Assembly: GCF_902826555.1 (NCBI RefSeq) | Contig: NZ_CADEFI010000016.1 | Location: forward strand, 1 to 32,341 | DNA length: 32,341 nucleotides | From: an uncultured Hyphomicrobium sp. | Lineage (GTDB): Bacteria; Pseudomonadota; Alphaproteobacteria; Rhizobiales; Hyphomicrobiaceae | Direction of reading: 5' to 3' | Part shown: piece by piece, positions 5,995 through 30,974 of the stretch | Layout: every line of letters starts with the position of its first letter | How positions within the stretch are numbered: position 1 is the stretch's first letter | Notes under the pieces: generated by a model | What the model was told of the DNA's origin: nothing | What the model saw: only the letters and a program-made list of their open reading frames with translations | The model's database searches: none | Position numbers and translations under genes: made by a program

Positions 5995-5996
5995 CA

Positions 5997-7772: not shown

Positions 7773-8368
7773 GATGCTCGCTCGTTCGGCTGCACGATGT
7801 CGATCAGCTCGCCCCAGAGGCCATGGTCCGCATGGGCGCCCATCTCGACACGGATCAGCGTCGCGCAGGCGATGCGCACCGCCCAGAGGCGTTCGAGCGG
7901 GATGGCGAGCATGACGGAGAGCGCCATGCGGATCGTTCCACCATGGGCGACGACGAGCACCGGGCCGTCTTCACGCGCCGCAAGCCGGTCGAGCGCGGCG
8001 GTGACGCGGGCGCGGACGCTCTGCATCGTCTCCCCGTCCGGTGGCGGGTTCGCGTCGGGATTTTCGTAAAAGGCGGCGAGGAGTGGATCCTGCGCCAGAT
8101 CACTGCGCTGCTTTCCGTCCCAGTCTCCGAAATCGATTTCCGCCCAGTCGGGGTCGATCACGACATCGCCGTCCGCATGCGCTGCCGCGATCTCGGCTGA
8201 AGCTCTCGCGCGCGCCAGCGGCGAAGCGACGATCGCCGACCATGTGCGTCCGGCCGTCTGCCGTGCGATCGCGGCCCGTCCCCGCGCCGAGAGCGGCGGG
8301 TTGGTGCGGCCGAGCAAGGCGCCTTCGGTCTCCGTTGCACCGTGGCGCAGGAACTCTACGACGGTCAT
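7769..8368 (-). CDS. cobC: Histidine phosphatase family protein, probable alpha-ribazole phosphatase
   Basis: This is a member of the histidine phosphatase (phosphoglycerate-mutase-like) superfamily, 199 aa. The catalytic LRHGATETEG sits at residues 6-15, the phosphate-pocket acidic segment EIDFGDWDGK in the middle, and the second catalytic His in VVAHGGTIRMAL. The position between cobT and cobS, with 4-nt overlaps at both ends, makes it the likely phosphatase that removes the 5' phosphate from alpha-ribazole phosphate or cobalamin phosphate. Histidine phosphatases are functionally diverse, so the substrate rests mainly on context. Confidence 0.88.
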   Translation of the reverse strand: MTVVEFLRHGATETEGALLGRTNPPLSARGRAAIARQTAGRTWSAIVASPLARARASAEIAAAHADGDVVIDPDWAEIDFGDWDGKQRSDLAQDPLLAAFYENPDANPPPDGETMQSVRARVTAALDRLAAREDGPVLVVAHGGTIRMALSVMLAIPLERLWAVRIACATLIRVEMGAHADHGLWGELIDIVQPNERAS

Positions 8369-15058: not shown

Positions 15059-17605
15059 TCAGAACTTGTACTTAAATCCGGTCCAGATCGTCCGCCCCTG
15101 GCCGGCTTTGATGCCGTCCTCGCGATCGGCGATGTAAAGCTCATCGAGCAGGTTGTCGCCGGCCACAAAGACGCTGGCACCGGTCCCGGCGATCTTCCAG
15201 TTCGCGCGCGCCGACAGCAGCCAGACGTCCGGCACGAAGCCATCCTCGCCCTCGGGGTCGCCGCCATAAGGCGTGTTGCCCTCGTCCGTGAAGAAGCCGC
15301 CGCGATACGTCCACGACACGCTCGCATCCCAGCCAGCCGCATGCTCGATGCCGACGGTCAGGTGAGCGAAGTGGCGGTAGACCTCGGGAAGCCTGTTGCC
15401 GTTGACGACTTCCTGCTCGAAGTTGGCCGGATCGTCGCAATCGAGACCGGCATCCTCGTCGCATTCAAAGAGCGAGCCCTTTTTGATCTTTGCGTCCGAG
15501 AGCGTGTACGTACCCTCGAAGAAAACATTGAAGGGGCTGCGGGTGAAGGGCTGGCTGTCGAGGCGGCCGTACACCTCAAAGCCATTGATCTCGACCTCAT
15601 CCATCGTGTGATAGACGTTGTTGCCCGCGGCGTCCGTGCCCGCTCCCTTGACCTGATAGTTCTCGATCAAGCTGTGGAACGCGGCGATATCGAAGGTCAC
15701 GCCGCGGATCGCCGTCGAGCGCAACCCGATCTGGAAGTTGTCGCCGATCTCGTCCTCAGGCGGGAAACCGGCAATGGCTTCACGCAGGACATGGGTGGTG
15801 AGACCGCGGTTATAGCCGCCATAAACGGTCGACTTGTAGAGGCCGGTGTAGGCGAAGGAAATGCCCGGCAGAACGTTCGTCGTGTCGAACGAATCCGTTG
15901 TGCGGTCACCGCTATAGCCTTCGATCTCGACGCAGTCGTCGACGCTCGGGTCGATGATGTTGCAATCCGGATCGTTCTCCAGATCTTCGCCCTCGCCTTC
16001 TTCCTCCGTCGCGGCGCGGGTCAAACGCGACACGCGATAATGCTCGAGCCGCAGGCCCGGCGTGACGTTGAAGGTGTTCGTCAGGTGGATGGTCGATTGC
16101 AGGAATGTCGAGAAGGCATTCGCATCCGTGTCGGTATCGAACACGGTGGTTCCGCTCTCGTCACCATCTTCCAGGATCTGGCCCTGACGGCCGAAGAAGT
16201 TCTTGTTGGTGAAGTCATTGTACTCGTAACGGATGCCGACCTGAATGTCTTGGCGCAGACCGCCGATGAACGGCCGGTCGGCGAGCTCAGCCCGTGTCTC
16301 GGCACCGAACTGGCGATAGGTCCTGAGACGGCCAAGCATCACGCCTTCCGGCACGAATACGTCGTCACCGTCGATTTCCGCGGCGAAGCCGTCATCCTCC
16401 TCGCTCGGATCCTCGCCATCGAAGTTCTGATAGCGGTCGCGGCGATGGTGGAAGCCATAGAGCCGCGACGTGATCGTCGTCGTGTCGTCGAGGTAGTAGT
16501 TGTGAACGAGCTGCAGCCTGGTCACGTCGGCGTTGTAGGTGTTGAACCGCGCGCCGGGGTTGACTAGCGACTTCAAATGCCCGGTCTCGAAGAAGAGGCG
16601 CTCGGCATTGCCGGGGCCGTCGTCCTCGTCGCCCTCGAGGTTGGCCTCGTCGTAGTTGTCACGTTGGCGGAAGTGCACGGCCGAGAACGTGACATCCGAG
16701 TTCACGCCCTTGAGGCCGATGGCGCCGTAGAAATCGTTGTAGCGCAGTCGCTCCAGATCCCAGGCGCCGTCCGCTTCCGCACCGCTGTAGGAGAACACGA
16801 CGCCGACGTTGCCGATCCCCTGGCGCGTGTGCACGTGGCGCGTGTTGGAGACGCCCTTGTCGCCGTCCTCGGTGAAGCCGATGGAGGCGCCGATCACCGT
16901 CTCATCGGGGCCGAAGGGCGACAGGTTGCGGAAGTTGACGATGCCGTGGTTGTTGAGCGGGCCGTGATTGATCACGGTGCCGCGCAGCACCTCGATGCTC
17001 TCGAGACGATCGATCGGAGGCACATAGTGCACCGACGGATCGATCCAGACGCTCATGTTGATCGGCTGTCCGTCCTCCAGGTGCAGAACCTTGCGGCCAC
17101 GGCGCGGCGGCGAGCCGCGCACGCCGATGCCGCCGTGGCGTCCGAAGCCGTCGTCGTTGATGACGTTGACGCCCGGCACGCGCGTGAACACGTCGTTGAT
17201 CTGCCGCGGCTGGAACTCGTCGATCTGCTGCGTATCGACGCGCGAGGCCGCAGACGAGAACTGCTCAAGGTTGCCGGGCAGGATGTTCGACGGATTGATC
17301 GGAGACGTCGGGGAATTCTCAGCACGCGCCCTTGCGCCGGCGCTGTTGGCGGCTCCATAGGGTGAGTTCTGCTCAACCGGAGCCTCTTCCGCAACGGGCT
17401 CGACGGCGGGGGCGGGCGCCGCCTTCTTTGCGGCGGGGGCGGACTTCTTGGTCGCGGCCGGCGCCTTCTTCTGAATGACCTGGACTTCCGGCAAACCTTG
17501 GCCGGCCGGCTCGGCCGCCTTCTGCGCAAGCGCCGCGCCCGAGACGAGGCAGCTCGCGCCCGCCATCATCAATATTTTTCCGATTTGAGTTCGGCTGATT
17601 GGCAT
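15059..17605 (-). CDS. TonB-dependent outer-membrane receptor with acidic loops
   Basis: The 848-aa protein has a signal peptide (ASCLVSGAALAQ), a Lys/Ala/Pro-rich linker (residues about 45-75), a plug domain (QINDVFTRVPGVNVINDDG ... GIGVRGSPPRRG ... IDRLESIEVLRGT) and a 22-strand-type barrel ending in the aromatic KYKF. There is no N-terminal signalling domain. Several predicted loops are unusually rich in Asp/Glu: LEGDEDDGPGN, DGEDPSEEDDG, DTDTDANAFS, EEEGEGEDLENDPDC...DDCVE, and ECDEDAGLDCDD, two of them with Cys pairs. Such loops suit a hard cation or a metal-chelate. Its location 2.5 kb from the XoxF accessory operon suggests lanthanide or chelate uptake, but iron-siderophore uptake is the default alternative. 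Start ATG 17605 with GGGGAG upstream. Confidence 0.92.
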   Translation of the reverse strand: MPISRTQIGKILMMAGASCLVSGAALAQKAAEPAGQGLPEVQVIQKKAPAATKKSAPAAKKAAPAPAVEPVAEEAPVEQNSPYGAANSAGARARAENSPTSPINPSNILPGNLEQFSSAASRVDTQQIDEFQPRQINDVFTRVPGVNVINDDGFGRHGGIGVRGSPPRRGRKVLHLEDGQPINMSVWIDPSVHYVPPIDRLESIEVLRGTVINHGPLNNHGIVNFRNLSPFGPDETVIGASIGFTEDGDKGVSNTRHVHTRQGIGNVGVVFSYSGAEADGAWDLERLRYNDFYGAIGLKGVNSDVTFSAVHFRQRDNYDEANLEGDEDDGPGNAERLFFETGHLKSLVNPGARFNTYNADVTRLQLVHNYYLDDTTTITSRLYGFHHRRDRYQNFDGEDPSEEDDGFAAEIDGDDVFVPEGVMLGRLRTYRQFGAETRAELADRPFIGGLRQDIQVGIRYEYNDFTNKNFFGRQGQILEDGDESGTTVFDTDTDANAFSTFLQSTIHLTNTFNVTPGLRLEHYRVSRLTRAATEEEGEGEDLENDPDCNIIDPSVDDCVEIEGYSGDRTTDSFDTTNVLPGISFAYTGLYKSTVYGGYNRGLTTHVLREAIAGFPPEDEIGDNFQIGLRSTAIRGVTFDIAAFHSLIENYQVKGAGTDAAGNNVYHTMDEVEINGFEVYGRLDSQPFTRSPFNVFFEGTYTLSDAKIKKGSLFECDEDAGLDCDDPANFEQEVVNGNRLPEVYRHFAHLTVGIEHAAGWDASVSWTYRGGFFTDEGNTPYGGDPEGEDGFVPDVWLLSARANWKIAGTGASVFVAGDNLLDELYIADREDGIKAGQGRTIWTGFKYKF

Positions 17606-18560: not shown

Positions 18561-20051
18561 GTGCTGCCCCCCTTGCGCAAGGCGAGCGCGCCGCCCAGGC
18601 CTGAAGACGCATCCGAGAGGATGCCGGCCGAACTGCGCTCGAAGCTCAGCACGCGATGGAACCAGCTTCCGTTTCGCTGGCAGATCCTGATTACGATTTC
18701 GATCGTGGCGCTGCTCGCGAGCGTGCTCAGCGGCGTGTTCGCCGTTGTCGATGCCCGAAGCCGGGCCGACATCGAAACGCAGGCGAACATCGAGCTATGG
18801 GCCAATCATATCGCTTCGAAGGTGCGGCAGGTCGAAGGGGAAAACCAGCTTCAGGAGTTCGCCAACGCGCTCGATATCGAGATGGCGAACATTCGGCACG
18901 TGTCTGTCACGGTCCGCGATGCGAACGGAAATGCCGTCGAGCCCGCTCACCATCATACGGCAAAGCCCGAGGTGCTCGAAGCGCGCGCGCCGAAATGGTT
19001 CGTTGATCTCGTGCAGCCGGACATCGAATCCCGCATCGTCGATATCGCTCCAGGCGGACGGCTCACCGGGTCCGTCCTGATCAGCGGCGTCCCCGATGAC
19101 GAGATCGCCGAAGCCTGGGAGCTGTTGAAGCTCCTGGCGCTGCTTTGGCTCGGCGCCATCGGCCTGATGATGACCGGCCTCTATTTCATTCTCGGTCTCG
19201 TTCTCAACCCGCTGGCGCGATTGGGAAGCGGAATGCGCGAGCTCGAGGTCGGTCATTTCGGCTTCCGGCTCGACATTCCGCATATCCGCGAGCTCGAACC
19301 GATTGCCGCCGCATTCAACGAGCTCGCTGCAGCTTTGGGGCAAGCCAATGCCGAGAACAGCCGCCTCTATCGGCAGCTCATTGTCGTTCAAGAGGAGGAG
19401 CGGCGCGAGATCTCCCGTGATCTGCACGACGAGTTCGGTCCTTGCCTGTTCGCCATCATGGCGGGGACGTCTGCCGTCGCCCATCACGCGAAGTCTCTTC
19501 CCGCGGCGCAGGCGGCGCCCATCCTGTCCTGCGTCGACGAGATCGTGCAGGTGTCGAACCATCTCAAGAGCCTGAACCGCGGCCTGCTCAACCGGCTGCG
19601 TCCGATCGCGCTCGGCCGCCGCACGATCTCGGACCTGATTTCGGAGCTCGTCGCAACATTCGAACGGCGGCACAACGGCATCGTGTTCCATCTCATCATC
19701 GACGGATTGCCGGCGACTTTCGGCGAAGGTATCGACCTCACGCTCTATCGTTGCGTTCAGGAAGGGGTGACGAATGCCATCCGTCATGGCCGCGCACACA
19801 GCATCACCATCGAATTCCAGGAAACGCAGTCCGGAGGACAGCCGGCCATCGAAGTCCGTGTCACGGACGACGGTCGCGGCATCGGGGAAATGGACCAGTT
19901 CGGCTACGGGCTCTCCAGCATGCGCGAGCGCGTCCATGAATTCGGCGGCTCGGTCAAGATCAGCCCCGTTACCCCGAGCGGTGCCGTTCTCGCGGCGACA
20001 ATTCCCCATTCGAGGGACAGCATGAGCGACGGGACTACTGCGGCGAGCTGA
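18561..20051 (+). CDS. Sensor histidine kinase, NarL/UhpB class (HisKA_3)
   Basis: 496 aa from the GTG at 18561, or 476 from the ATG at 18621. Layout: transmembrane helix at about 41-65, periplasmic sensor region 66-187 (with a His triplet at 130-132 in VEPAHHHTAKPE), second helix around 190-216, HAMP-like linker, then HisKA_3 with EERREISRDLHDEFGPCL (phosphorylated His289) and an HATPase domain with the N-box EGVTNAIRHG, DDGRGIG and GYGLSSMRERVHEFGG. Such kinases pair with LuxR/NarL-type response regulators. None is adjacent; the fragment of one at the right edge of the window is a candidate partner (inference). It is convergent with the WD40 gene. Methanol or metal sensing is plausible from context only. 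Confidence 0.9.
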   Translation: MLPPLRKASAPPRPEDASERMPAELRSKLSTRWNQLPFRWQILITISIVALLASVLSGVFAVVDARSRADIETQANIELWANHIASKVRQVEGENQLQEFANALDIEMANIRHVSVTVRDANGNAVEPAHHHTAKPEVLEARAPKWFVDLVQPDIESRIVDIAPGGRLTGSVLISGVPDDEIAEAWELLKLLALLWLGAIGLMMTGLYFILGLVLNPLARLGSGMRELEVGHFGFRLDIPHIRELEPIAAAFNELAAALGQANAENSRLYRQLIVVQEEERREISRDLHDEFGPCLFAIMAGTSAVAHHAKSLPAAQAAPILSCVDEIVQVSNHLKSLNRGLLNRLRPIALGRRTISDLISELVATFERRHNGIVFHLIIDGLPATFGEGIDLTLYRCVQEGVTNAIRHGRAHSITIEFQETQSGGQPAIEVRVTDDGRGIGEMDQFGYGLSSMRERVHEFGGSVKISPVTPSGAVLAATIPHSRDSMSDGTTAAS

Positions 20052-20069: not shown

Positions 20070-21206
20070 TCACGGCGCCTTTTCCGGAACATTCCAGATC
20101 TTTGCGGTTCCATCGAGCGATGCCGTCAGGATCTTCTTTCCATCGGGACTGAATTCCGCCATCTCGACCGCTTTCTCGTGCCCTTCGAGGGCGGCGATCA
20201 GCGTGCCGCTGCGGACGTCCCAAAGGGCGGCGCGATTGTCGTGCGCGGCCGTGACCAGCTTGCCGCCATCCTTGTCGAATTGCACGCTGCTGATCAGCCG
20301 GCGGTGGGCGCCCGACATGGTCGCCAGCAACTCCCCGGTCTTTGCATCGAAGACACGCGCCATCTTGTCGGCCGAGCCGATCGCAACCCGGCTCCCGTCC
20401 GGGCTGAAGTCAGCGCATCGGACGCCGCGGGTCGGCCCGGTCAATTCCAGCAAGAGAGCCCCAGTCTTGGCGTCCCAGATCTTTGCGGATTTATCGCTCG
20501 AGGCCGTGACGATGCGGGTGCCGTCGGGGCTGAACCGGGCCATGGCGATCATGCTTGCATGCCCGCTCAGGGTGAGCAAAACCGCGCCGCTCGCGGCGTC
20601 GAACACGCGCGCTTTGTTGTCGCTCGACGACGTGAGGATCGTCTTGCCGTCGGGGCTGAAGGTGGCACCCGTCACCCATTCGTCGTGGGCCGAGAGGGTA
20701 GCGATTTTTGCGCCCTTGGTGTCCCACACGACGGCGGTCTTGTCGTGCGAGGCGGTGACGATGCGGCTGCCGGTGGCGTCGAAAGCGATCTCCTCGATCA
20801 TGGCCTGATGTCCGACGAAGTCAGCCACATGAGCGCCGGTCTCGGCGTTCCACAGCTTCGCGGAGCCGTCGCGCGTGGCGGTGGCAATCAATTTGCCGTC
20901 GGGGCTGAACGCCACTCGCCATACGCCTTCGCTGAACCCGTCGATCGACAGAAGCTCGGCGCCTGTCGTCGCATCCCATATGCGGACGGTGCGGTCGTTG
21001 GCAGCTGTCGCGACCCGGCTGCCGTCCGGACTGAAGTGCGCGACGGTCAGGTCCGACGTATGACCACGCAACGTCGCGTGCACGAGCGACGCCGGCTCCG
21101 CGCGCGCTGGATTTTCCACGCCCCCCAGCGCCACGCCCAGCGCGGCCAGGAGAAAAAAGGCTTGGCTTGTAGCTCGAATGCGTCTCGTCACCATGCGGCA
21201 CTCCAT
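20070..21206 (-). CDS. Exported WD40-repeat beta-propeller protein (eight repeats)
   Basis: 378 aa from the ATG at 21206 (GAGGTG 7 nt upstream). After an N-terminal signal peptide (AFFLLAALGVALGGV, cleavage around PARAE) the rest is eight WD40 repeats of about 42 residues. Each has the FSPDG-type turn and a closing IWD/LWN/VFD, for example VRIWDATTG, AKLWNAETG, AKIWDAKTG. The repeats are highly regular and fill the protein, predicting a closed propeller that acts as a binding platform in the periplasm. It is the last gene of the xox accessory operon, 5 nt after the preceding stop. WD40 proteins have no catalytic role by themselves; the partner is unknown. Not a PQQ propeller: the W-docking motifs of quinoproteins are absent. 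Confidence 0.9.
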   Translation of the reverse strand: MECRMVTRRIRATSQAFFLLAALGVALGGVENPARAEPASLVHATLRGHTSDLTVAHFSPDGSRVATAANDRTVRIWDATTGAELLSIDGFSEGVWRVAFSPDGKLIATATRDGSAKLWNAETGAHVADFVGHQAMIEEIAFDATGSRIVTASHDKTAVVWDTKGAKIATLSAHDEWVTGATFSPDGKTILTSSSDNKARVFDAASGAVLLTLSGHASMIAMARFSPDGTRIVTASSDKSAKIWDAKTGALLLELTGPTRGVRCADFSPDGSRVAIGSADKMARVFDAKTGELLATMSGAHRRLISSVQFDKDGGKLVTAAHDNRAALWDVRSGTLIAALEGHEKAVEMAEFSPDGKKILTASLDGTAKIWNVPEKAP

Positions 21207-21211
21207 TGTGC

Positions 21212-21670
21212 TCACCTCAAGGGCTGCCACGTCGGATCATCGAAGCGCTCCGGGTAGCGGGCGAGCGCCGTGTCGATCTGGATGATGCCATCGATGGGCG
21301 TCAGCTCCCCACCGCGGCCGGCGACCGCCTCGGCACCCGCGACAATGTCCGCGAGAAGCGTCTTGAGATCGGGTTTCGCCGTGAGCGGCACCGCAGCGTC
21401 GGCCTCGATGCGATCAGCCTCCTTGCGGATCCGCTCCGCGAAGCTGCGCGCGCTTGCGGGCGGCATACGGCGGTGCGTCACGAGGGTGTGGCTGTCGAGC
21501 GTCGCTTTGCGGATGGCGGCCATTCCGGAGCGAAGCACGTCGTCGGCCGGCCACTTTGCGTCTGCACTTGCGGCGATGCCGATCGTTGCCGCGTCCATGA
21601 CCGCCGCGATCAACAGCATCGCTGTCAGGATGGCCAGGCATCTGCCAATGGCGGAGCGCGCGTGTGCCAT
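21212..21670 (-). CDS. Exported hypothetical protein of the xox accessory operon
   Basis: 152 aa, N-terminal signal peptide or anchor (CLAILTAMLLIAAVMDAA). The mature part is mainly helical: ADDVLRSGMAAIRKATLDSH, ARSFAERIRKEADRIEADA, DLKTLLADIVAGAEAVAG, and a conserved-looking end PIDGIIQIDTALARYPERF. The all-helical pattern resembles a four-helix bundle (cytochrome c'-like), but there is no CxxCH, so it does not bind haem c covalently. I do not recognise a named family. It starts 4 nt after the beta-propeller stop and ends 5 nt before the WD40 start, so it belongs to the operon. Confidence 0.75.
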   Translation of the reverse strand: MAHARSAIGRCLAILTAMLLIAAVMDAATIGIAASADAKWPADDVLRSGMAAIRKATLDSHTLVTHRRMPPASARSFAERIRKEADRIEADAAVPLTAKPDLKTLLADIVAGAEAVAGRGGELTPIDGIIQIDTALARYPERFDDPTWQPLR

Positions 21671-22676: not shown

Positions 22677-23942
22677 TTATTTGTTGAACCGGCACTTCGT
22701 TTCAGGCTCATCGAAGCCCATGGTGTCGGTGAGAAACTTCTGGTGCAGAAAGCCGTCCTGCGGGGAAATCGAGACCAGCGTGCGCGGGCCCGATAGCAAG
22801 ATCGGCTGGCGCATCTGGTGGTCCCAGGTCCTGAACGTCAGGCCAACTCCCTTGAATCCCGCGACCTCGAAATCCTTGGACAGGATGTAGGCATTGATCT
22901 CGTTCGGCTTGTTCTTGCCGGTCCTGGTCACCGCCTCGCCGACGACGCGCACGCCGAGCCAACTCGTGAAATCCCGCTCGGTCATGAAGCGTTTGGCTTG
23001 CTTTTCGAACCTGTTCTGGAGCTGGGTGCCGGCGTACTGCTCGAACGAGCGATGCCACGCGACGGCCTGCAGCCCCTGCGAGCCGACAACCGGCCTCGGC
23101 TCATAGGTGCGAAACAGCAGATAGTCTCCGAATGCCTCGCCCACATCCGAAACGAAGATCACGTCGTAGTCCGGCGCGCCCTGAGTCAACAGCGGCATCT
23201 GAGTCTGGATCTGCTGATGGCCGGAGTCGGTACGCCGCGATCCCGCATCGAACTCGTACTCGCGCTCGAGCACGATCTTGGCGCCGAATTTCTGCGCCGC
23301 CCGGCGGATGGCCGCGAGATATTCTTTGTCACCCGGCGTCGTGCCGTACACCACGAACCATCTGCGCCACTTTTTCCAAGAGAGATACTGCGCGAGCGCG
23401 TCGGCCCGCATGGCCCAATTGGGAATGACGTGAAAGACGTTGAGCCGGCAATCCTGTTGGCGCAGCTCGTCGCTGCTCGAGCGCACGTTGAAGATGACGG
23501 CGCCCTTCGCCTCGGGCAAATCCGCGACCGCCAGCAGGTCCGACGGCTCGAGATCGGCGACGATGAGGCCCTGCCCGCTCGCGAGCTGAGCCTTGACCAT
23601 GGGCACGATATCCTCGGTCTCCTTCGCCACCACCTCGACCAGCTCGAAATGCTGCTCGACGAGCCGGCCCGTCATGTTGTTTTCTTTGATGGCGAGACGC
23701 GCGCCTTGGATGCCCTCGTCTGTTAGCACCTTGTCGAGGAGCGACAGCGGGGCCGGCTCCGGGTAGCGCTTGGCGACATAAAGCACCTTCGTCACGAGCG
23801 CACCGGGCGCCGCCTCCGCGGGCGCTTCGGGGATGGCGACGGCGGGCGGTGCCACCGCCAACCATCCCCCGAGGAGCACGAGAGCGGCCGCCGAGCCGGA
23901 CTTAACAGACTTAGCCAGGACGAGCAGCCGCTGTCTTTTCAT
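22677..23942 (-). CDS. PQQ-system ABC-type substrate-binding protein
   Basis: 421 aa with an N-terminal signal segment (AAALVLLGGWLAVAPPAVA). The fold is the type I periplasmic binding protein (Leu/Ile/Val-like): TKVLYVAKRYPEPAPLSLLD, DEGIQGARLAIKENNMTGR, GLIVADLEPSDLLAVADL, RRWFVVYGTTPGDKEYLAA, and a conserved C-terminus GPRTLVSISPQDGFLHQK. It matches the ABC-like binding family tied to PQQ-dependent alcohol dehydrogenases (TIGR03863-type). Usually ATPase and permease genes lie close by; none is in this operon. The ATG at 23942 is 1 nt past the cytochrome stop (TGAGATG). Ligand unknown; PQQ, a metal complex or an alcohol product are possibilities. Confidence 0.88.
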   Translation of the reverse strand: MKRQRLLVLAKSVKSGSAAALVLLGGWLAVAPPAVAIPEAPAEAAPGALVTKVLYVAKRYPEPAPLSLLDKVLTDEGIQGARLAIKENNMTGRLVEQHFELVEVVAKETEDIVPMVKAQLASGQGLIVADLEPSDLLAVADLPEAKGAVIFNVRSSSDELRQQDCRLNVFHVIPNWAMRADALAQYLSWKKWRRWFVVYGTTPGDKEYLAAIRRAAQKFGAKIVLEREYEFDAGSRRTDSGHQQIQTQMPLLTQGAPDYDVIFVSDVGEAFGDYLLFRTYEPRPVVGSQGLQAVAWHRSFEQYAGTQLQNRFEKQAKRFMTERDFTSWLGVRVVGEAVTRTGKNKPNEINAYILSKDFEVAGFKGVGLTFRTWDHQMRQPILLSGPRTLVSISPQDGFLHQKFLTDTMGFDEPETKCRFNK

Positions 23943-23943
23943 C

Positions 23944-24552
23944 TCACCACACCTTCTTCTCTTCGCGGCCTTTCCAGACCGTGCGGATCCAGGCGATGGC
24001 CTTCCAGAGCTTGGTCTCGTCGTCGATCAGATCGCGATAGGGCGGCATGGGACCGACGACGCCTTCCTGGCCCTTGCGGGCGTAGCCGTGCTTCTGCAGC
24101 TCCTGGCTACCGAGCGTGATTAGGCGGAACAGCGTGTCGTCGTCACCGCCATAGACCCAGGTCTCGTTGGTGAGCGGCGGGCACATGCCGCCACCACCGC
24201 CTCCGCCGTGGCACCCGTTGCAGGAGAGGCCCATGTAGATCTTGTGACCTTCCTCGGCGATTTTCGGATCTTTGTAGTCGAAGGGATTCTTAAGCTTGCC
24301 CTTCTCCGTTTTCTCGACGCGATCGATGGGTTTCATGGGCGCGCCACCCGCCGCCGCATCAGCGGCAGGAGCAGCAGGAGCCGCTTCCGGTGCCCCGTCG
24401 GCCTTCTTTTCGGCCGCGGCGGGCTCCGATTTCTCTGCGGGTGCCGGCTCGTCTGCGGCACCGACGGCACCGACGAACGCTCCGGTCGAGAGCGCTGCTG
24501 CAAGCAGCAGCCTTACGAATTGGCTTTTCACGTTTAGATTTCCTCGTGTCAT
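23944..24552 (-). CDS. xoxG: c-type cytochrome, XoxG-like electron acceptor of methanol dehydrogenase
   Basis: 202 aa from ATG 24552; a GTG at 24531 with GAGGAAA 8 nt upstream gives a compact signal peptide (KSQFVRLLLAAALSTGA) and is equally likely. After the signal is a 50-residue Ala/Pro/Glu/Lys-rich linker. The haem domain has LSCNGCHGGGGGGGMC (CxxCH plus a third Cys after seven Gly), then TNETWVYGGDDDTLFRLI and the probable axial Met in GVVGPMPPYRDL. This fits the methanol-metabolism cytochrome family (TIGR03874-like), the role usually called XoxG/cytochrome cL: it takes electrons from PQQ in XoxF in the periplasm. The symbol rests on context. It follows xoxJ after 116 nt. Confidence 0.85.
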   Translation of the reverse strand: MTRGNLNVKSQFVRLLLAAALSTGAFVGAVGAADEPAPAEKSEPAAAEKKADGAPEAAPAAPAADAAAGGAPMKPIDRVEKTEKGKLKNPFDYKDPKIAEEGHKIYMGLSCNGCHGGGGGGGMCPPLTNETWVYGGDDDTLFRLITLGSQELQKHGYARKGQEGVVGPMPPYRDLIDDETKLWKAIAWIRTVWKGREEKKVW

Positions 24553-24668
24553 TGCAAGTTTCGCCTCCCGATTTCCGTGCGAACGGCAGCGAGGCACCCA
24601 CCGTCCGTCTCTCCCCCTGTGCTTGCAGAGATTCGTCTGTGGCGCGCCGTTACTCCGGCGTCCGCCGC

Positions 24669-26528
24669 TCATAACTTTTCCTTTCCACCAGTTTCCCCAC
24701 TGCCGTGCTGTCGCGAGCGCTCGGAGATCGTCGACTGGAAGAGCGCGATCGACTTTGCGGCGTCCTCGTTGAGGTTCTCGCGCGCGATGTCGATGGCTGT
24801 CTTGCCGGCGTCCGATTTGAGATTGGGATCCGCGCCGGCCTCGAGCAGCAGGCCGAGCATGGGAATGTTGCCACGCGCGGACGCGATCATGAGCGCCGTC
24901 ACGCGATGCGCGTTGGAGGCGTTCACGTTGGCCCCGCGCTCGACGAGCGCGGTCGCGATGTCGGTCGAGCGCAGACCTTGGCGCCGCTCGATCTCCTTGG
25001 CCGCCTCTCCAACCGCCATCTGGCTCGCCGCGACCATGAGCGGAGTCACCTTCTCCGTTCCTGCGGCGACGTTGACGTTGGCGCCGAGCTCGATCAGCGC
25101 TTTGGCGGCGAGATACTTGCCGCTTTCGATCGCGAGCGACAGCGGACCGAAACCGCCATCGATCGATTCCTCAAGATCGGCGCCAGCGGCAACCAGCGCA
25201 CGGATGGAGGGGACGTGGTTGCGCTCGGCCGCGTGGATGAGCGCCGTGAACCCGTCCTTGTCACGCCCGTTGACATTCGCCTTGAGGGAAACAAGCAGCG
25301 GAATGATCTTCTCGTTGCGGTTGCGCGCTGCTGCCTGGAGTGCGGCGTAACCCTGCGCATCGTGCTTGTTGACGTCGGCGCCCTTCTCCACCAGGAAGCG
25401 GATGCGGTCTGCGTCCGACGCCAGCACCGCGTTGGCGAGCTCGGACTGAACGTCCGCACCTTCTGCCAGCCACGCCTCGAGCCGCGCGCGCGTGACGAGC
25501 TGATCGGGCGATGCCTCGACCTTCGGCCCCTGGCTGATCTCGAACGGCTTCGTATACGAGCCGTGAGACGGCAGATCGCCTGGCACCACGCATTTGCTGC
25601 ATTTGACCAGCGGCACGCCGTAATCGCGCAGGATCTTCTCGATTTCGGTGCGGTTCGCCTCGAGCGCGTAGTCGAGCGCGAACTTGAGCACGACGTTGGT
25701 GGGGCGCACGCCGAGCGAAAGGTCGAACTCCAGGGGCACCTCGTCTTCCATGAGATTGACGGGCAGCACCGAGAGCGGCTCGTTTTTGATGGTGCGGAAC
25801 CAGCCCGCGAAAGGTCCCCACACGGCGGCCACGTCCAGCTTGCCTTCGATCACCTCCTGCACCTGATAGGTCGGCTGCTGCTCGGGCAGGAGATCGCCGT
25901 TGTGGCTGACGGTATGGACGACCACGTTGGTGCTCACGCCGCGTCGCTTCAGCACCTCGCGGATGGCCGAGGTCTGATAGACCCCGATCTTCAGCTGCTT
26001 GAGCTTCGGATCGTCGAGGCCCGAGATGTCGAGTCCGCGGTCGTTGCGCCATGCCAGGACATAGGTCGTTCGGTAGACCGGGTTGGTGGTCAGCACGCCC
26101 GCGTACACGCTCGGCATATCGACAAGCACGTCGCAATCATTGGTCTCGAACGTCTGGCGCGTGATGCCACGCTCGAGGTAGGGGCGCCAGAAGTTGATGA
26201 CCTGAGACCCCATGGAGCGGGCCAGCACGGCCGCGATCTTGTTCTGAAAGCCTTGTCCGTCGATGGACGACAACGGCATGTTGCCGGGATCGCCGCATAC
26301 GCGCAGAGGTCCGAGGCTCTTGGTCTCGAACGCCTTCTTGCCGGCCATCTTGGCGGCCGTCTTCTCAGCCGCCGTAAGCTCGTCGAACTCCTTGTTGGCG
26401 CGGAATCCAGGATCCGCCGCCATGGCCGATCCTACGCCGAGAAGCATGGCGGCCGCGGACAGGATGGGTGCCAGCACGCTAACGGTTGGCAATGAGAATG
26501 ACAAAGCAGTCACGCGCGTCTCATGCAT
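24669..26528 (-). CDS. xoxJ: XoxJ-like quinoprotein-associated binding protein fused to ankyrin repeats
   Basis: 619 aa. Signal peptide 1-37 (ends GVGSAMAAD). Residues about 70-330 form a type II periplasmic binding domain of the MxaJ/XoxJ family (TIGR03871-type): LRVCGDPGNMPLSSIDGQGF, NDCDVLVDMPSVYAGV, YRTTYVLAWRNDRGLDISGL, LKIGVYQTSAIRE, DVAAVWGPFAGWF, and DYGVPLVKCSKC with Cys310/Cys313. Residues about 360-605 are six to seven ankyrin repeats, for example FLVEKGADVNKHD, GFTALIHAAERNHV, LIELGANVNVAA, LLLEAGADPNLKS. XoxJ is thought to help activate or mature XoxF. Known MxaJ/XoxJ proteins are usually about 280-300 aa, so the ankyrin half doubles the protein. The frame is unbroken across the junction, so this is a genuine fusion in this sequence. 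Confidence 0.92.
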   Translation of the reverse strand: MHETRVTALSFSLPTVSVLAPILSAAAMLLGVGSAMAADPGFRANKEFDELTAAEKTAAKMAGKKAFETKSLGPLRVCGDPGNMPLSSIDGQGFQNKIAAVLARSMGSQVINFWRPYLERGITRQTFETNDCDVLVDMPSVYAGVLTTNPVYRTTYVLAWRNDRGLDISGLDDPKLKQLKIGVYQTSAIREVLKRRGVSTNVVVHTVSHNGDLLPEQQPTYQVQEVIEGKLDVAAVWGPFAGWFRTIKNEPLSVLPVNLMEDEVPLEFDLSLGVRPTNVVLKFALDYALEANRTEIEKILRDYGVPLVKCSKCVVPGDLPSHGSYTKPFEISQGPKVEASPDQLVTRARLEAWLAEGADVQSELANAVLASDADRIRFLVEKGADVNKHDAQGYAALQAAARNRNEKIIPLLVSLKANVNGRDKDGFTALIHAAERNHVPSIRALVAAGADLEESIDGGFGPLSLAIESGKYLAAKALIELGANVNVAAGTEKVTPLMVAASQMAVGEAAKEIERRQGLRSTDIATALVERGANVNASNAHRVTALMIASARGNIPMLGLLLEAGADPNLKSDAGKTAIDIARENLNEDAAKSIALFQSTISERSRQHGSGETGGKEKL

Positions 26529-26695: not shown

Positions 26696-28576
26696 TCACT
26701 CGTAGACCCGGAAGGTGAAGAGCGTGCCAGCCTGCGGGATCTTGTCGAGGTTGGCTGCCTTCGTCATCGCCGTGGCGCCGATCGCACCGAACTTGTCGTT
26801 GAGATCGAGGCCAGCGGTGACGGGTACGCCGATCCAGCCGCCGATGCCGGCGAGGATTGAAACGTACTGCTTGTCCTTCACCTTGTAGGTGATCGGGTTA
26901 CCGATGATGCCGGAGGCGAGCTTGCGGCTCCAGAGCACCTTACCCGACTTGCGGTCGACGGCGCGGAAGTCACCGCCGAGCGAGCCGTAGAACACGAGGC
27001 CGCCGTCGGTCACCATGGTGCCGCCCCAGTTCGGATAGGGATCGGGGATCTCCCAATCCGCCTCGCCGGTCAGCACGTCGAACTTCTTGACCTTACCGGT
27101 TGTGCCGGGCTTCTCGGGATACATGTACACGTTGGCGAACACGTAGACCGTGCCCTGTTGCGTGTGCGTGCGCTCCTGAGGCTCAAGCTCCATGCACCAG
27201 TTGTTGGTGGGGCAATAGAACTTGTTCGGCTCGGCTGGATCGACTGCGCAAGGCTGCTGGTCCTTGCCGCCCATTGCTGACGGGCAGGCCGAGACGTTGC
27301 GACCGCGCTCGAGCGGCGAGTGCTCGCGCACCTTCACCGGACGACCCGTCTTGAGATCGACCTTCTCGGCCCAATCCGTCGTCACGTACTTGTGGGCGCG
27401 CAGAAGCGTGCCGTCCTGACGATCGAGAACATAAGCGAAGCCGTTGCGGTCGAAGTGAACGAGGGCCTTGCGGGCTTTGCCGTCCACGTCCATGTCGACG
27501 AGAATGTTCTCGTTGACGCCGTCATAGTCCCACTGGTCGAAGGGCGTCATCTGGTAGGCCCAGACGGCCTCGCCGGTGTCCACCTTGCGGGCGAAAATGG
27601 TCATCGACCACTTGTTGTCGAACTCGCCCGTGTTGCACTCTTCGTGCGTCTTCTTCGAGCAGCGATACGCGGGGCTCCAGAGGCCCGGGTTGCCGGTCGA
27701 ATAGTAGACGATCTTCAGGTCGGAGTCGTAGCTGAACCACGCCCACGCTGCGCCGCCGCCGATCTTGTAATCGTCGCCGACGTGCGTGTGGATGCCGAGA
27801 TCCTTACCGGCCGTGCCGTAGTGCGGATTGGCCTTGTTGGTCTCGGGCGTGAGGCAGACGTCCTTGTCGGAGCCCGTCGAGTGGCACTCCCAGACCTTCT
27901 TGCCGTCCTTCAGGTTGTAGGCGGTGACGCGGCCGCGGGCCGCGAACTCGTCGCCGCCGAAGCCGAGGATCACGTAGTCGCCGGCGATGAGCGGAGCCGA
28001 GGTGCTCGTCTCGCCCTTCTCGGGCCAGGCGTGCTTCACAACCCACGCCTCTTTGCCGGTCGCGGCGTCGAGAGCGATCAGGAAGCCGTCGAGCGTGCCG
28101 TAGTAGAGCTTGCCGTCGGCGTATGCGGGACCGCGGTTGACGGTGTCGCAGCAGGCGCGCGGCACGGCCGATTCATCACGGTCGGTGGTCTTGACGTAGT
28201 TCCAGATCTGCTTCGGGTGATCGGGGTCCGAGAGATCGAGACCCTGCGCGATGTTGCACTGGGCCATGTTCGGGCAGCCCGAGACGAAGAACAGCATGGG
28301 TTTGCCGCCAACGTCCTCGACGAAGACCGGCTGGCCTTCGTGGCCACGCAGCGCTCCGGTCGACTGCGACCAGACCATCTGCAGGTTCTTGACGTTGTCG
28401 GCGTTGATGTCCTTGAGCGGCGAGTGGCGGGTTAGATGATTGTCGCGCCCCGGTGCGCCCCACTGATTGGGGTCGGCCGCGCGCTTATCGACCTCATCGT
28501 TCGCGAAGGCGGGGGCGGAAAGCCCCAGCATCGCCAACATGAGGCCGCCCGTGAGCAAGCCAAGTTTGTTGGTCAT
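26696..28576 (-). CDS. xoxF: PQQ-dependent, lanthanide-type methanol dehydrogenase XoxF
   Basis: 626 aa from ATG 28576 (AGGAGA about 6 nt upstream), signal peptide ending APAFAND. A quinoprotein eight-bladed propeller oxidising methanol (and often formaldehyde) in the periplasm. The vicinal disulfide that packs on PQQ is Cys142-Cys143 (ACCDTVNRGPAY). Predicted metal ligands are Glu210 (GGDEFAARG), Asn296 (STGNPGLW) and catalytic Asp350, with a second acid at Asp352 (DQWDYDGVNE). Calcium MxaF has Ala at the latter position, so this is the lanthanide signature. Extra Cys pairs (101/107, 231/241, 306/314) are absent from the common XoxF5 type, so this is another clade (XoxF1 or XoxF3 candidates; not resolved here). 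No mxaI-like small subunit gene is present. Confidence 0.97.
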   Translation of the reverse strand: MTNKLGLLTGGLMLAMLGLSAPAFANDEVDKRAADPNQWGAPGRDNHLTRHSPLKDINADNVKNLQMVWSQSTGALRGHEGQPVFVEDVGGKPMLFFVSGCPNMAQCNIAQGLDLSDPDHPKQIWNYVKTTDRDESAVPRACCDTVNRGPAYADGKLYYGTLDGFLIALDAATGKEAWVVKHAWPEKGETSTSAPLIAGDYVILGFGGDEFAARGRVTAYNLKDGKKVWECHSTGSDKDVCLTPETNKANPHYGTAGKDLGIHTHVGDDYKIGGGAAWAWFSYDSDLKIVYYSTGNPGLWSPAYRCSKKTHEECNTGEFDNKWSMTIFARKVDTGEAVWAYQMTPFDQWDYDGVNENILVDMDVDGKARKALVHFDRNGFAYVLDRQDGTLLRAHKYVTTDWAEKVDLKTGRPVKVREHSPLERGRNVSACPSAMGGKDQQPCAVDPAEPNKFYCPTNNWCMELEPQERTHTQQGTVYVFANVYMYPEKPGTTGKVKKFDVLTGEADWEIPDPYPNWGGTMVTDGGLVFYGSLGGDFRAVDRKSGKVLWSRKLASGIIGNPITYKVKDKQYVSILAGIGGWIGVPVTAGLDLNDKFGAIGATAMTKAANLDKIPQAGTLFTFRVYE

Positions 28577-28984
28577 TTCGGTCTCCTCTCCTAGCTGCGA
28601 GGCTTGCAGACTTGAGGAACCAGGCAAGCCGCACCCGGCCGCTCGAAAGGCCCAGCAAGAAGCCTCGAACGGGTCCGTCACGCGCGATTTGTCGCTTAGC
28701 GATACGATCGGGACTCTTGTGTGGGGTCCATCGGCTGTGTCTGCGGTGCCGCAGGAAAAAATCCACAGACGGATCGCTCGTTCTGCTCCCTAGCTTTCAA
28801 GAAACAAGCGCCGACAAACAAGAACGCATGACGACCGGTTCGATCGTTAAGCACGCGGACGTGATCGTCAGCAGGGTGCACCGTAGGGACGTTATACCAG
28901 AACATCGAGGGGGAAACGTCCCATTCGCACTGTGAAAAATTCCCCATCACGGATAGTTGAAAAGCGACGACTGCGCGGACGTCG
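28577..28984 (-). promoter_or_regulatory. Long upstream region of xoxF
   Basis: About 400 nt between the xoxF start and the preceding gene, with no convincing coding frame. It contains the ribosome binding site next to xoxF, a small dyad TCGCT-T-AGCGA around 28690, and, at its distal end, the conserved motif copy B and the terminator of the upstream gene. A long leader or several regulator sites are likely for this normally metal-regulated gene. No specific regulator consensus was recognised. Confidence 0.5.
28909..28945 (-). promoter_or_regulatory. Conserved intergenic motif, copy B
   Basis: On the minus strand GGGGAATTTTTC (28945-28934), a 7-nt spacer, GAATGGGAC (28926-28918), and then a C-rich end (TTTCCCCC) that mirrors the first GGGGAA. 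The two core blocks are identical to those of copy A at 11442-11475. It points towards xoxF, about 330 nt away, and lies just past the upstream gene's terminator. Confidence 0.45.
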
Positions 28985-28988
28985 TCAC
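28959..28988 (-). terminator. Probable terminator of the formylglycine-enzyme-like gene
   Basis: On the minus strand GTGACGAC (28988-28981), a 9-nt loop, and GTCGTCGC (28971-28964) form an 8-bp stem with one G-U pair, followed by TTTTC. The stem overlaps the stop codon. Confidence 0.55.
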
Positions 28989-30088
28989 GGCGCGAGATCG
29001 CGTGCAATGCGAAAACCGACACTAAAATTTCGGAAATCGGGCACGTTGCGCGCCCGCATGGCGGAGCGCATCACCTTGGCGGGAAAGAATGCCGAGCCGC
29101 CGCGTAGGCTCCTGACGCCATGCGCCGGCGGGCGATCGCCAACGGGTGCGCAATCGTCCGTCAGGCGCGGGCGGCCATCCTTCGGTCCCGACGCGTAGTC
29201 GTCGCAATAGAAGTCGGCAGTCCATTCCCATACGTTGCCGTGCACATTGAACAGCCCCCAGGGATTGGGGGCAAAGGCCGCGGCGGGCGCGGGCGCCTTA
29301 CTGTCCCACTCACTCCCGCAACCGGCACAGGCGGCGCGCACGATGCCGTCGGCCGGCATCGCATCACCCCACCAATACGCCGTTATCGTTCCGGCACGGG
29401 CCGCAAATTCCCATTCCGCTTCCGAGGGAAGTCGATAGGCATGTCCGGTTTTCCGGCTCAGCCAGGCCGCATACGACGTCGCGTCGTCGAAGCTGACGCC
29501 GACGATCGGCTGCCCCGGAGCGGTGAGATTCTCACCGAGATTGCGGTAGTATCGGCTCGCTCCGGTCTCGATATTGTGCTGTCCGCCGGGCTCCAGCCAC
29601 TCGGGCGGCTTGCATCCACCGGCCTCGACGCAGGCCTTATACTCGGCGACCGTCGTCACCGTTGCGGCAATGGCGAACGCCGGCACCGATACTTCGGCCT
29701 GTTTCTCATCGTCCGCGTGATCAGGCTCGGATTCCGGTGAACCGATCTTGAACCCCTTCGGGGCCTGAGGAACCGCGACCATCGCCGGGCATATGTCTGC
29801 GCAGTCCCGGAACGGCTTGGCGCCGCCCGTCACGCGCAGCTCCGTTTTCTCCTGGCCGGCTAGCCCCGCACGAACAGACACCAAGGCAAGGTGAAGCTCG
29901 TTCGCGCGCGCGGCCACGAGATCCTTCGCTTGCGGGTCGCTCGAGAGTATGGCCTCGAGCGCTGCTCCATCCTTGGCCGACGCCACATCGCCCGCGCGGT
30001 CTGCGGCGTGCAACGGGACGGCCCACAACAGCAGAGGCGACATGGCGGAAAAGAACGCCAATTGGGAAATCTTCCTGGTGCCCTGCAT
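28985..30088 (-). CDS. Exported formylglycine-generating-enzyme family protein (SUMF1-like fold)
   Basis: 367 aa with signal peptide (AFFSAMSPLLLWAVPLHAAD). Residues 30-100 form a helical, Ala-rich region. The remainder is the FGE-sulfatase domain (C-type-lectin-like): MVAVPQAPKGFKIGSPESEP, PAFAIAATVTTVAEYKACV, QPIVGVSFDDATSYAAWL, YRLPSEAEWEFAARAG, GLFNVHGNVWEWTADFY, SLRGGSAFF and FSVGFRIARDL. True formylglycine-generating enzymes modify sulfatase Cys residues; many bacterial homologues have other roles (such as EgtB-like or binding). No sulfatase gene is near and the protein is periplasmic, so a binding or assembly role is as likely. Start ATG 30088 with AGGGAG upstream. Divergent from the SoxYZ-like gene. 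Confidence 0.85.
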   Translation of the reverse strand: MQGTRKISQLAFFSAMSPLLLWAVPLHAADRAGDVASAKDGAALEAILSSDPQAKDLVAARANELHLALVSVRAGLAGQEKTELRVTGGAKPFRDCADICPAMVAVPQAPKGFKIGSPESEPDHADDEKQAEVSVPAFAIAATVTTVAEYKACVEAGGCKPPEWLEPGGQHNIETGASRYYRNLGENLTAPGQPIVGVSFDDATSYAAWLSRKTGHAYRLPSEAEWEFAARAGTITAYWWGDAMPADGIVRAACAGCGSEWDSKAPAPAAAFAPNPWGLFNVHGNVWEWTADFYCDDYASGPKDGRPRLTDDCAPVGDRPPAHGVRSLRGGSAFFPAKVMRSAMRARNVPDFRNFSVGFRIARDLAP

Positions 30089-30170: not shown

Positions 30171-30974
30171 ATGGACCGTCGCTTCTTGCTCGCACTTGCC
30201 TCGTTTTTTGTCTGCTCGCACGCCCTCGCCGCCGACCCCGATTTATGGCCCGATCTCCGCCAGGAGCTGTTCGGCGATCGTGCCATCGTCGAAAACGACG
30301 GGACGGTTACGCTCTATGCACCCGAGAATGCGGAGGACGCAGCGCTGGTCCCGGTCAGCTTGCGCTTTCCCGAAGCCACGTCCCGCTCGATCGTCGCGGT
30401 GACTCTCCTTGTCGAACGCAATCCGGCGCCGGTTGCTGCCGTGTTCAAGTTCGGCGATGCCTTTCGCAACGGACGGGATGTCGGCGAACGCCAGTTGGCG
30501 ACGCGCATCCGGGTCGACTCGTTCTCGCGTGTACGCGCCATCGCCGAGACGGCGGACGGCACGTTGCACATGGTGACGCGCTTCGTCGCCGGCGCGGGCG
30601 GCTGCTCGGCAACGCCTTCCAAGGACATGGAGGCGGCCCTCGCCAGCATGGGCAAGATGAGCATCAAGACCATGACCGAGCCGGTTCGCGGCGACGCATG
30701 GCGCGAGACCCAGGTGATGATCAAGCATCCCAACTTCACGGGCCTGCAGATGGATCCGATCTCGCGCGGCTATGTCCCAGCGCGGTTCGTCAACGATCTC
30801 GAAATCAAGAACGGCGGTACGCTGTTGCTGCGAATGGAAGGCGGCATTTCGATCTCCGAGAACCCGAACCTACGATTCAGCTACGGCTCCACCGCATCGG
30901 GGGACTCGATCGAAGTCACCGCCCGCGACACGGAAGGCGCCACCTTTACCGACCGTTCCGACGGCGGCTCATGA
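30171..30974 (+). CDS. Quinoprotein dehydrogenase-associated SoxYZ-like carrier protein
   Basis: 267 aa, signal peptide (FLLALASFFVCSHALAAD). The first half resembles SoxY: DLWPDLRQELFGDRAIVEND, VPVSLRFPEA, FVAGAGGCSATPSKDMEAAL, where the Cys in GGCS is the likely swinging-arm attachment Cys (usually C-terminal GGCG in free SoxY). The second half resembles SoxZ: VMIKHPNFTGLQMDPISRGYVPARFVNDL split by short linkers and ending with SYGSTASGDSIEVTARDT. This fused form is known beside PQQ dehydrogenase genes (TIGR04557-type); what it carries is unknown. Ribosome binding site GGAGGA 7 nt before the ATG. It supports a link of this side of the cluster to xoxF. Confidence 0.9.
   Translation: MDRRFLLALASFFVCSHALAADPDLWPDLRQELFGDRAIVENDGTVTLYAPENAEDAALVPVSLRFPEATSRSIVAVTLLVERNPAPVAAVFKFGDAFRNGRDVGERQLATRIRVDSFSRVRAIAETADGTLHMVTRFVAGAGGCSATPSKDMEAALASMGKMSIKTMTEPVRGDAWRETQVMIKHPNFTGLQMDPISRGYVPARFVNDLEIKNGGTLLLRMEGGISISENPNLRFSYGSTASGDSIEVTARDTEGATFTDRSDGGS

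What the first reader, a model, noticed from the sequence alone, without database searches (positions are those of the whole stretch)
24669..26528. XoxJ-family binding protein fused to an ankyrin-repeat domain
The N-terminal half is a clear MxaJ/XoxJ-type periplasmic binding protein. The C-terminal half is six to seven ankyrin repeats in the same uninterrupted frame. Known XoxJ proteins are about half this size. An ankyrin platform exported to the periplasm and joined to the XoxF activator could recruit XoxF, the cytochrome or the WD40 protein encoded downstream. I know of no described role for such a fusion.
Basis: partly seen in the sequence, partly recalled or inferred. Interest (0 to 1): 0.72.

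Follow-up and report, generated by a model that had tools for sequence, protein, structure and literature searches.

The report
Ankyrin-tailed helper of XoxF1 methanol dehydrogenase
One branch of the rare-earth (lanthanide) methanol-oxidising enzymes is accompanied by its own longer version of the usual helper protein, with an added chain of ankyrin repeats, and this long-kept combination gives a handle on how that branch of enzymes is made to work.

Summary
ORF 24669-26528 (minus strand) is one uninterrupted 619-aa protein with a signal-peptide-like start: a TIGR03871 XoxJ/MxaJ domain, a hinge with a CxxC, and seven ankyrin repeats. It is no artefact: 51 fused relatives occur in 27 of 103 genomes of its family, both halves are under purifying selection, and relatives reach Methylocella and another proteobacterial class.

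The fusion follows one enzyme clade. The gene upstream is a XoxF1-clade methanol dehydrogenase. All 75 dehydrogenases examined that precede a fused J fall in that clade; all 23 that precede a plain J fall outside. Of 397 genomes of the order, 24 have XoxF1 and 23 of those have the fusion; the 24th XoxF1 sits at a contig end; no other genome has it.

So this is XoxJ1, a single-origin, clade-specific form of a known accessory protein, most likely a maturation or activation factor whose ankyrin arm holds XoxF1. What the arm binds is not shown. The gene is named in print; I found no description of its ankyrin half.

The parts
24669..26528 (-). XoxJ1: exported XoxJ/MxaJ-type protein fused to seven ankyrin repeats (619 aa)
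   Evidence: ORF list and sequence; TIGR03871 240 bits over cut-off; Pfam ankyrin families; AlphaFold2 mean pLDDT 86.1
25605..26306 (-). MxaJ/XoxJ-type periplasmic-binding-protein domain (aa 75-308)
   Evidence: TIGR03871 coordinates; PDB 6ONP XoxJ, 125-126 bits
25590..25601 (-). hinge CxxC motif (C310, C313), invariant in 60 aligned fused proteins, in 0 of 27 plain J tails
24708..25493 (-). ankyrin domain (aa 346-607): capping helix and seven repeats, repeat 5 with an inserted helix
   Evidence: Pfam and DSSP of the model
26696..28681 (-). XoxF1-clade methanol dehydrogenase, the partner gene (ORF from GTG; an ATG at residue 36 is a likelier start, by inference)
   Evidence: best PDB 7O6Z XoxF1, 847 bits against 537 for XoxF2 and 496 for XoxF5; XoxF1-diagnostic Asp and WDYDG; trees
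23944..24672 (-). c-type cytochrome (XoxG-like); its longest ORF overlaps the XoxJ1 stop (ATGA)
   Evidence: Pfam cytochrome families; TIGR03872 matched below cut-off; sequence
22677..23942 (-). TIGR03863 PQQ-ADH-associated ABC substrate-binding protein, LutA-like
   Evidence: 459 bits over cut-off 413.6; the name LutA-like is by analogy with passages of PMC9291206 and PMC7391723
21675..22649 (-). TIGR03866 YVTN beta-propeller, LutB-like
   Evidence: 444 bits over cut-off 287.3; a YVTN propeller lies downstream of 61 of 66 fused loci and within 6 kb of 65 of 66
20070..21230 (-). WD40 propeller with a signal-like start; not a constant neighbour (5 of 66 loci downstream)
   Evidence: Pfam WD40; neighbour count
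28985..30088 (-). FGE-sulfatase-domain protein upstream of xoxF1, an occasional cluster member
   Evidence: Pfam FGE-sulfatase 158 bits; seen near several fused loci
30171..30974 (+). quinoprotein-dehydrogenase-associated SoxYZ-like carrier (TIGR04557)
   Evidence: 249 bits over cut-off 140

Best explanation
This is XoxJ1, the accessory protein of the XoxF1 clade. Shown: the J domain and the ankyrin half are one protein with a signal-peptide-like start, the fused J domains form one branch, and they accompany XoxF1-clade dehydrogenases and no others examined. Inferred: like MxaJ and XoxJ, the J domain binds its dehydrogenase during maturation and helps it take up PQQ and metal; the ankyrin half is a second, clade-specific grip on XoxF1 itself, so that this helper serves XoxF1 and not the MxaF or XoxF5 made in the same periplasm. 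Likely docking sites are XoxF1-only surface features, such as the longer cysteine-paired segment after the TGNPGxW motif.
For: Clade tie: 75 of 75 dehydrogenases followed by a fused J lie in the XoxF1 clade (69, 6) and 23 of 23 followed by a plain J lie outside it. Genome tie: 23 of 24 XoxF1 genomes and 0 of the other 373 carry the fusion among 397 (three candidates scored per genome); the exception is a 3.4-kb contig that ends 345 bases past XoxF1. One branch: 68 fused J domains, SH-aLRT 100. Co-divergence: J and XoxF1 tree distances correlate at r = 0.73 over 68 pairs, highest of 2000 permutations 0.11. XoxF1 is upstream in 65 of 66 loci. A cysteine pair in a clade-specific segment: 75 of 75 partners, 0 of 23 others. 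The protein class is reported to bind and mature its dehydrogenase: passages of PMC12997753 and PMC7391723; PDB entry 9ISM holds an MDH alpha subunit and MxaJ. By gene order, Methylocella silvestris XoxJ1 (Msil_3148) is this protein, detected by proteomics and falling with XoxF1 on lanthanum (passages of PMC9291206; locus L041 of strain TVC).
Against: No complex was modelled and no binding measured. Canonical ankyrin binding-face positions are not more conserved than the back of the repeats (mean 0.459 against 0.469, p = 0.63). A YVTN propeller is almost as constant a neighbour as XoxF1 (65 of 66 within 6 kb). Family f31 genomes carry further xoxF1 copies without a J gene beside them: four tandem copies and four solo ones with ample flank, two more near contig ends. 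XoxF1 of Methylacidimicrobium was purified and oxidised methanol as the dehydrogenase (passages of PMC8546591). The J-XoxF1 correlation and shared traits are confounded by shared descent. In M. silvestris deleting xoxF1 changed growth on methanol little.
Confidence: 0.5

Rival explanations
1. The ankyrin half binds the YVTN propeller (LutB-like) or the LutA-like binding protein of the cluster and brings metal or its carrier to XoxF1.
For: A YVTN propeller follows 61 of 66 fused loci within 4.6 kb and lies within 6 kb, either side, of 65 of 66, against 8 of 23 plain-J loci. It is the only one of the four counted downstream genes left in the second cluster of the window's genus. The LutA-like gene follows 43 of 66. 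In M. extorquens lutA and lutB mutants grow slowly with lanthanum and an mxaF lutH mutant at first not at all (passages of PMC7391723); homologues of LutBAH lie beside xoxF1 in M. silvestris (PMC9291206).
Against: LutA- and LutB-like genes also lie near 7 plain-J, non-XoxF1 dehydrogenases (L047, L048, L111, L114, L116, L130, L133), so they do not need ankyrin repeats. In the other-class family most of the propellers score only 128-147 bits against the window's and may be another kind.
Confidence: 0.25
2. One reading: the ankyrin half recruits the cytochrome or the WD40 protein to XoxF1.
For: In the window both genes lie downstream; the cytochrome ORF overlaps the XoxJ1 stop codon.
Against: Cytochrome of this type in 37 of 66 loci and WD40 in 5 of 66 downstream, with the ankyrin half kept. 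A diverged cytochrome, or one encoded elsewhere, would not have been counted.
Confidence: 0.1
3. The ankyrin half holds XoxF1 inactive until needed, as the ankyrin protein Bd3460 of Bdellovibrio holds its endopeptidases.
For: Bd3460 is a precedent for a bacterial ankyrin protein that binds and inhibits cell-wall enzymes (abstract of PMC4686830).
Against: Nothing in the sequences points to inhibition; the J family is described as activating or maturing.
Confidence: 0.08
4. The fusion is an assembly or frameshift artefact, or a neutral accretion.
For: A few copies are frame-broken or truncated (L167, L108, L091, L107).
Against: 51 fused matches in 27 family genomes; relatives in two proteobacterial classes; dN far below dS in both halves.
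Confidence: 0.02

Closest known systems
XoxJ of Methylorubrum extorquens (PDB 6ONP; organism and XoxF5 partner recalled)
   Same: Best solved match to the J half (126 bits); same binding-protein family; the two J-domain cysteines (LRVC and CDL) are shared in the alignment.
   Different: The solved chain has 284 residues and no ankyrin half or hinge CxxC in the aligned part. Plain J matches listed for the window's family are about 29-40% identical to the J half.
MxaJ (PDB 9ISM)
   Same: J-type protein solved in the same entry as an MDH alpha subunit; 93 bits.
   Different: 300-residue chain without ankyrin repeats. The window genome's own MxaJ scores best on TIGR03870 (365 bits) and lies by mxaF.
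XoxJ1 named in Methylocella silvestris BL2 (PMC9291206) and strain LS7-MT (PMC7996495)
   Same: Cognate of xoxF1; the M. silvestris TVC locus L041 has the same gene order and carries the fusion.
   Different: In the passages seen it is only a solute-binding protein or cognate gene; the word ankyrin does not occur in the main text of either paper.
XoxGJ fusion of Methylacidiphilum (PMC8498564, passages)
   Same: Another J protein fused to a second domain in a lanthanide MDH system.
   Different: Fused to cytochrome XoxG; these strains have only XoxF2; no ankyrin repeats mentioned in the passages.
Bd3460 of Bdellovibrio (PMC4686830, abstract)
   Same: Bacterial ankyrin protein that binds cell-wall enzymes.
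   Different: Described as an ankyrin-fold inhibitor, with no J domain mentioned.

Membership tests
XoxJ/MxaJ-type accessory proteins (TIGR03871) | Score over the curated cut-off of TIGR03871 | tested here: met
   240.1 bits against 212.15
XoxJ/MxaJ-type accessory proteins (TIGR03871) | Gene beside a quinoprotein dehydrogenase | tested here: met
   Next to XoxF1, 168 bases apart; 65 of 66 relatives
XoxJ/MxaJ-type accessory proteins (TIGR03871) | Export to the periplasm | tested here: met
   Signal-peptide-like N terminus in 60 of 60 by a loose hydropathy rule of my own; no dedicated predictor and no localisation data
XoxJ/MxaJ-type accessory proteins (TIGR03871) | Single-domain protein of about 280-300 residues | tested here: not met
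   619 residues with an ankyrin half; the size is typical of solved members, not part of the curated model
XoxJ/MxaJ-type accessory proteins (TIGR03871) | Binds or activates its dehydrogenase | not testable with these tools
   Reported for relatives (passages); no assay or complex model here
XoxF1 clade (partner gene) | Groups with Methylacidimicrobium XoxF1 (7O6Z) apart from XoxF2, XoxF5 and MxaF | tested here: met
   SH-aLRT 100 in two quick trees without bootstrap; no XoxF3 or XoxF4 reference was used
XoxF1 clade (partner gene) | Diagnostic Asp (Asp172 of PMC8546591) | tested here: met
   In the window and in 69 of 69 partners; in the six added from another class 3 have Asp, 2 Asn, 1 Ala
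XoxF1 clade (partner gene) | Lanthanide-type DYD motif | tested here: met
   WDYDG in the window; several plain-J enzymes also have it, so it marks metal type, not the clade
Ankyrin repeat | Helix-pair repeats matched by the Pfam models | tested here: met
   Ank_2 96.3 bits, cut-off 27.3; seven helix pairs
Type IV secretion ankyrin effectors (AnkY, AnkH and others) | Score over the NCBIfam cut-off | tested here: not met
   Best 71.3 bits against a cut-off of 600; repeat similarity only

The most novel reading that the evidence does not exclude
XoxJ1 is a disulfide-handling maturation factor. Its hinge CxxC (60 of 60 aligned fused proteins, 0 of 27 plain J tails) exchanges disulfides with XoxF1, which in these bacteria has paired cysteines found in none of the 23 other dehydrogenases examined: pair 341/349 in 75 of 75 partners, and pairs 266/276 and 478/490 that are present or absent strictly together. 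The ankyrin arm would hold the folding enzyme while cysteines, PQQ and metal are set. The XoxF1 of Methylacidimicrobium lacks these cysteines, so its J should lack the CxxC.
Probability: 0.13. Interest if true: 0.8.

Novelty: new variant of a known kind. Interest (0 to 1): 0.6.

Why it matters
How XoxJ and MxaJ serve their dehydrogenases is still being worked out, and XoxF1 is a little-understood lanthanide-enzyme clade: passages of PMC9291206 call for more work on its role and properties. A naturally occurring, clade-tied J with an extra arm and a CxxC gives a ready handle: it suggests who the J protein touches, how one periplasm can keep XoxF1, XoxF5 and MxaF apart, and what may have to be co-expressed to make active XoxF1. 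It may also serve as a genomic marker for proteobacterial XoxF1 systems.

Tried and rejected
Artefact or frameshift: rejected. Type IV effector: NCBIfam effector models are far under their cut-offs. Cytochrome or WD40 as general partner: weakened by neighbour counts. Binding-face conservation of the ankyrin repeats: no signal; the list of binding positions is recalled from ankyrin design work. No XoxF3/XoxF4 reference was used, so five plain-J dehydrogenases (L122, L124, L131, L044, L045) carry no clade name. Plasmids: 185 records matched, 0 covering 80% of the query, and the 30 listed match the J half. Class draw of 385 genomes: only the window's own. Structure search of the model never ran. 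Papers: XoxJ with ankyrin 0, mxaJ with ankyrin 0, xoxF with ankyrin 2, whose passages concern other things. Two papers on XoxJ structure and MDH assembly are not held; I know them only from a review's passages and reference list.

A recount within 6 kb on either side gives YVTN 65, LutA-like 44, cytochrome 38 and WD40 6 of 66 fused loci, and YVTN 8, LutA-like 7, cytochrome 0 and WD40 0 of 23 plain-J loci. I therefore moved 0.05 from the main reading to the YVTN rival. The cytochrome seed is the window's own, so other cytochromes are missed.

Rows dropped or relabelled before counts: small duplicate loci L001-L034 and L051-L073, and L037 and L040 (same places as L134 and L149); dehydrogenase ORFs under 550 aa or at most 380 bits, ten of which score at least 100 bits, among them cut or split XoxF1 copies in L151 and L100; L108 relabelled as fused because its gene is in two pieces; L107 left out of the J tree; 15 of 81 fused loci left out of the neighbour count for short DNA; six plain J genes without a counted dehydrogenase (L113, L127, L128, L129, L046, L049). 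In one search, 72 of 76 fused ORFs showed the CxxC; the four without are L088, L104, L107 and L108, all short. The plain-J set came from my own choice out and, not a random draw.

Full report
What was reported and what is there. The window's minus-strand ORF 24669-26528 codes for 619 residues without a stop. Residues 75-308 match TIGR03871 over its cut-off; residues from about 346 to 607 are ankyrin repeats by Pfam and form a capping helix and seven helix pairs in an AlphaFold2 model of mean pLDDT 86.1. Between them lie an ordered CxxC (C310, C313) and a loose linker (329-335). The pTM of 0.56 says the two halves are not placed firmly relative to each other.

It is real and conserved. In the window's own family, 51 fused matches occur in 27 of 103 genomes (counted from the table); after them the E-value jumps from 9e-170 to 2e-41, where only the J half matches. 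Named holders include Hyphomicrobium zavarzinii ATCC 27496, Methylocella silvestris TVC, a Beijerinckiaceae MAG and a Burkholderiales MAG. In wider draws the fusion is found at E up to 1e-60 in 23 of 397 genomes of the order, in 1 of 385 of the class draw (the window's own) and in 3 of 398 of the phylum draw, own included. Within the genus, dN is 0.07-0.12 and dS 0.63-1.09 for both halves in six comparisons; the higher dS values are near saturation.

It belongs to one enzyme clade. The gene 168 bases upstream is a methanol dehydrogenase whose best solved relative is the XoxF1 of Methylacidimicrobium thermophilum (7O6Z, 847 bits), well ahead of XoxF2 (537), XoxF5 (496 and 484) and MxaF (453). 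It carries the aspartate that PMC8546591 calls diagnostic of XoxF1 (passages). I fetched the surroundings of the fused genes and of a chosen set of plain J genes and asked which dehydrogenase precedes each. In the tree, 69 dehydrogenases followed by a fused J, with 7O6Z and four extra tandem copies, form one clade, and the 23 followed by a plain J lie outside with MxaF, XoxF2 and XoxF5 references. The diagnostic Asp is in 69 of 69 against 0 of 23; the four tandem copies have Ser.

A second test came from the enzyme side. Searching the same 397 genomes for XoxF1 (E up to 1e-230) found 24; 23 are the genomes with the fusion, and the 24th, G110, has XoxF1 on a 3367-base contig that ends 345 bases past it. 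A search from XoxF1 in a family of another class found 7 of 117 genomes; all 7 genes, three of them at 58-65% identity, are followed by a fused J (G1176 is L110). At the diagnostic site the six newly added ones have Asp in 3, Asn in 2 and Ala in 1. The family of G1095 (100 genomes) added only G1095 itself, and the family of G111 (20 genomes) repeated three genomes already counted, 3 with both and 17 with neither.

Not every XoxF1 copy has its own J. In family f31 four tandem xoxF1 copies precede another xoxF1 that has the fused J, and four solo copies with ample flanking DNA have no J beside them (L165, L166, L168, L169); two more lie near contig ends (L170, L171). Each of these genomes has a fused J elsewhere, so it could act in trans.

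One branch, shared history. The 68 fused J domains long enough to use lie on one side of a single branch (SH-aLRT 100, length 1.06) from 23 plain J domains and three solved ones. Distances in the J tree follow those in the dehydrogenase tree (r = 0.73 over 68 pairs; 0.11 at most in 2000 permutations). This shows joint descent, not contact.

Neighbours. Of 66 fused loci with enough DNA held, XoxF1 precedes 65 (the other is a frame-broken copy whose first piece follows XoxF1). Within 4.6 kb downstream the YVTN propeller is found in 61, the LutA-like protein in 43, the cytochrome in 37 and the WD40 gene in 5. Within 6 kb on either side the YVTN propeller is found in 65 of 66, against 8 of 23 plain-J loci. 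The window's genus has two clusters: the one in the window with cytochrome, LutA-like, YVTN and sometimes WD40, and a second with XoxF1, XoxJ1 and YVTN only (G000:C16:32799-37813, locus L050). Since the ankyrin half is kept in both, cytochrome and WD40 are poor candidates for its constant partner; XoxF1 and the propeller are the two that remain.

Cysteines. The hinge CxxC is invariant in the 60 aligned fused proteins, found in 72 of 76 fused ORFs when short and broken ones are included, and in 0 of 27 plain J tails. The segment after the TGNPGxW motif is 30-41 residues long in 75 of 75 XoxF1 partners, with a cysteine pair in each, and 18 or 24 residues in the 23 others, with neither cysteine. 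7O6Z has the long segment without the cysteines. Further pairs are present or absent together: 266/276 in 71 and absent in 4, 478/490 in 55 and absent in 20, 136/142 together in 60, absent in 14, split in 1. This is the basis of the most novel reading. It rests on clade-wide traits that may be linked by descent alone.

Function. Passages of a 2026 review say that XoxJ and MxaJ may bind partly folded apo-enzyme and help insert PQQ and metal (PMC12997753); in M. [quoted passage not shown] In M. silvestris BL2, XoxF1, XoxJ1 and XoxG1 fall 7-, 62- and 7-fold with lanthanum; deleting xoxF1 had little effect on growth on methanol (passages of PMC9291206). I equate its Msil_3148 with the fused gene of strain TVC by gene order, not by sequence. 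The best account is a XoxF1-dedicated maturation or activation factor whose ankyrin arm grips XoxF1. A direct attempt to find a conserved binding face on the ankyrin repeats gave nothing.

Standing. xoxJ1 has been named (PMC9291206, PMC7996495), but the main text of neither contains the word ankyrin, and searches of the open library for XoxJ or mxaJ with ankyrin returned none. Most subscription papers could not be searched. I file it as a new variant of a known kind: a member of the J family by model score and gene place, with a second domain that I found described for no member.

Noticed in passing
window 18561-20051 (+) and 15059-17605 (-): A histidine kinase with a LapD/MoxY periplasmic domain and a TonB-dependent receptor lie beside the xoxF1 cluster, so the region may join sensing, metal uptake and XoxF1.
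   Followed up: partly
L050:4800-9814 (-), beyond the window in the same contig: A second, shorter cluster of XoxF1, fused XoxJ1 (51% identical) and YVTN propeller, followed further on by an mxaF-mxaJ-mxaG set.
   Followed up: yes
L090, L095, L098, L104; L165, L166, L168, L169 (L170, L171 near contig ends): Family f31 genomes carry extra xoxF1 copies without a J gene beside them; the four tandem ones have Ser in place of the XoxF1-diagnostic Asp.
   Followed up: partly
L188:7932-9899, L186, L187: Deep-branching XoxF1-clade enzymes of another class have Ala or Asn at the diagnostic site, and L188 has WDYDA in place of WDYDG.
   Followed up: no
L167:9503-11323, L108, L091, L107: Frame-broken or truncated copies of the fused gene; sequencing error or decay was not decided.
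   Followed up: no
L113, L127, L128, L129: J genes 34-40% identical to the J half, among its nearest plain relatives, with no full dehydrogenase gene in the DNA held; L128 and L129 are on short contigs.
   Followed up: no
window 1310-9465 (-): Cobalamin-type genes (CobB/CobQ-like amidotransferase, tetrapyrrole methylase, DBI_PRT phosphoribosyltransferase) by Pfam.
   Followed up: no
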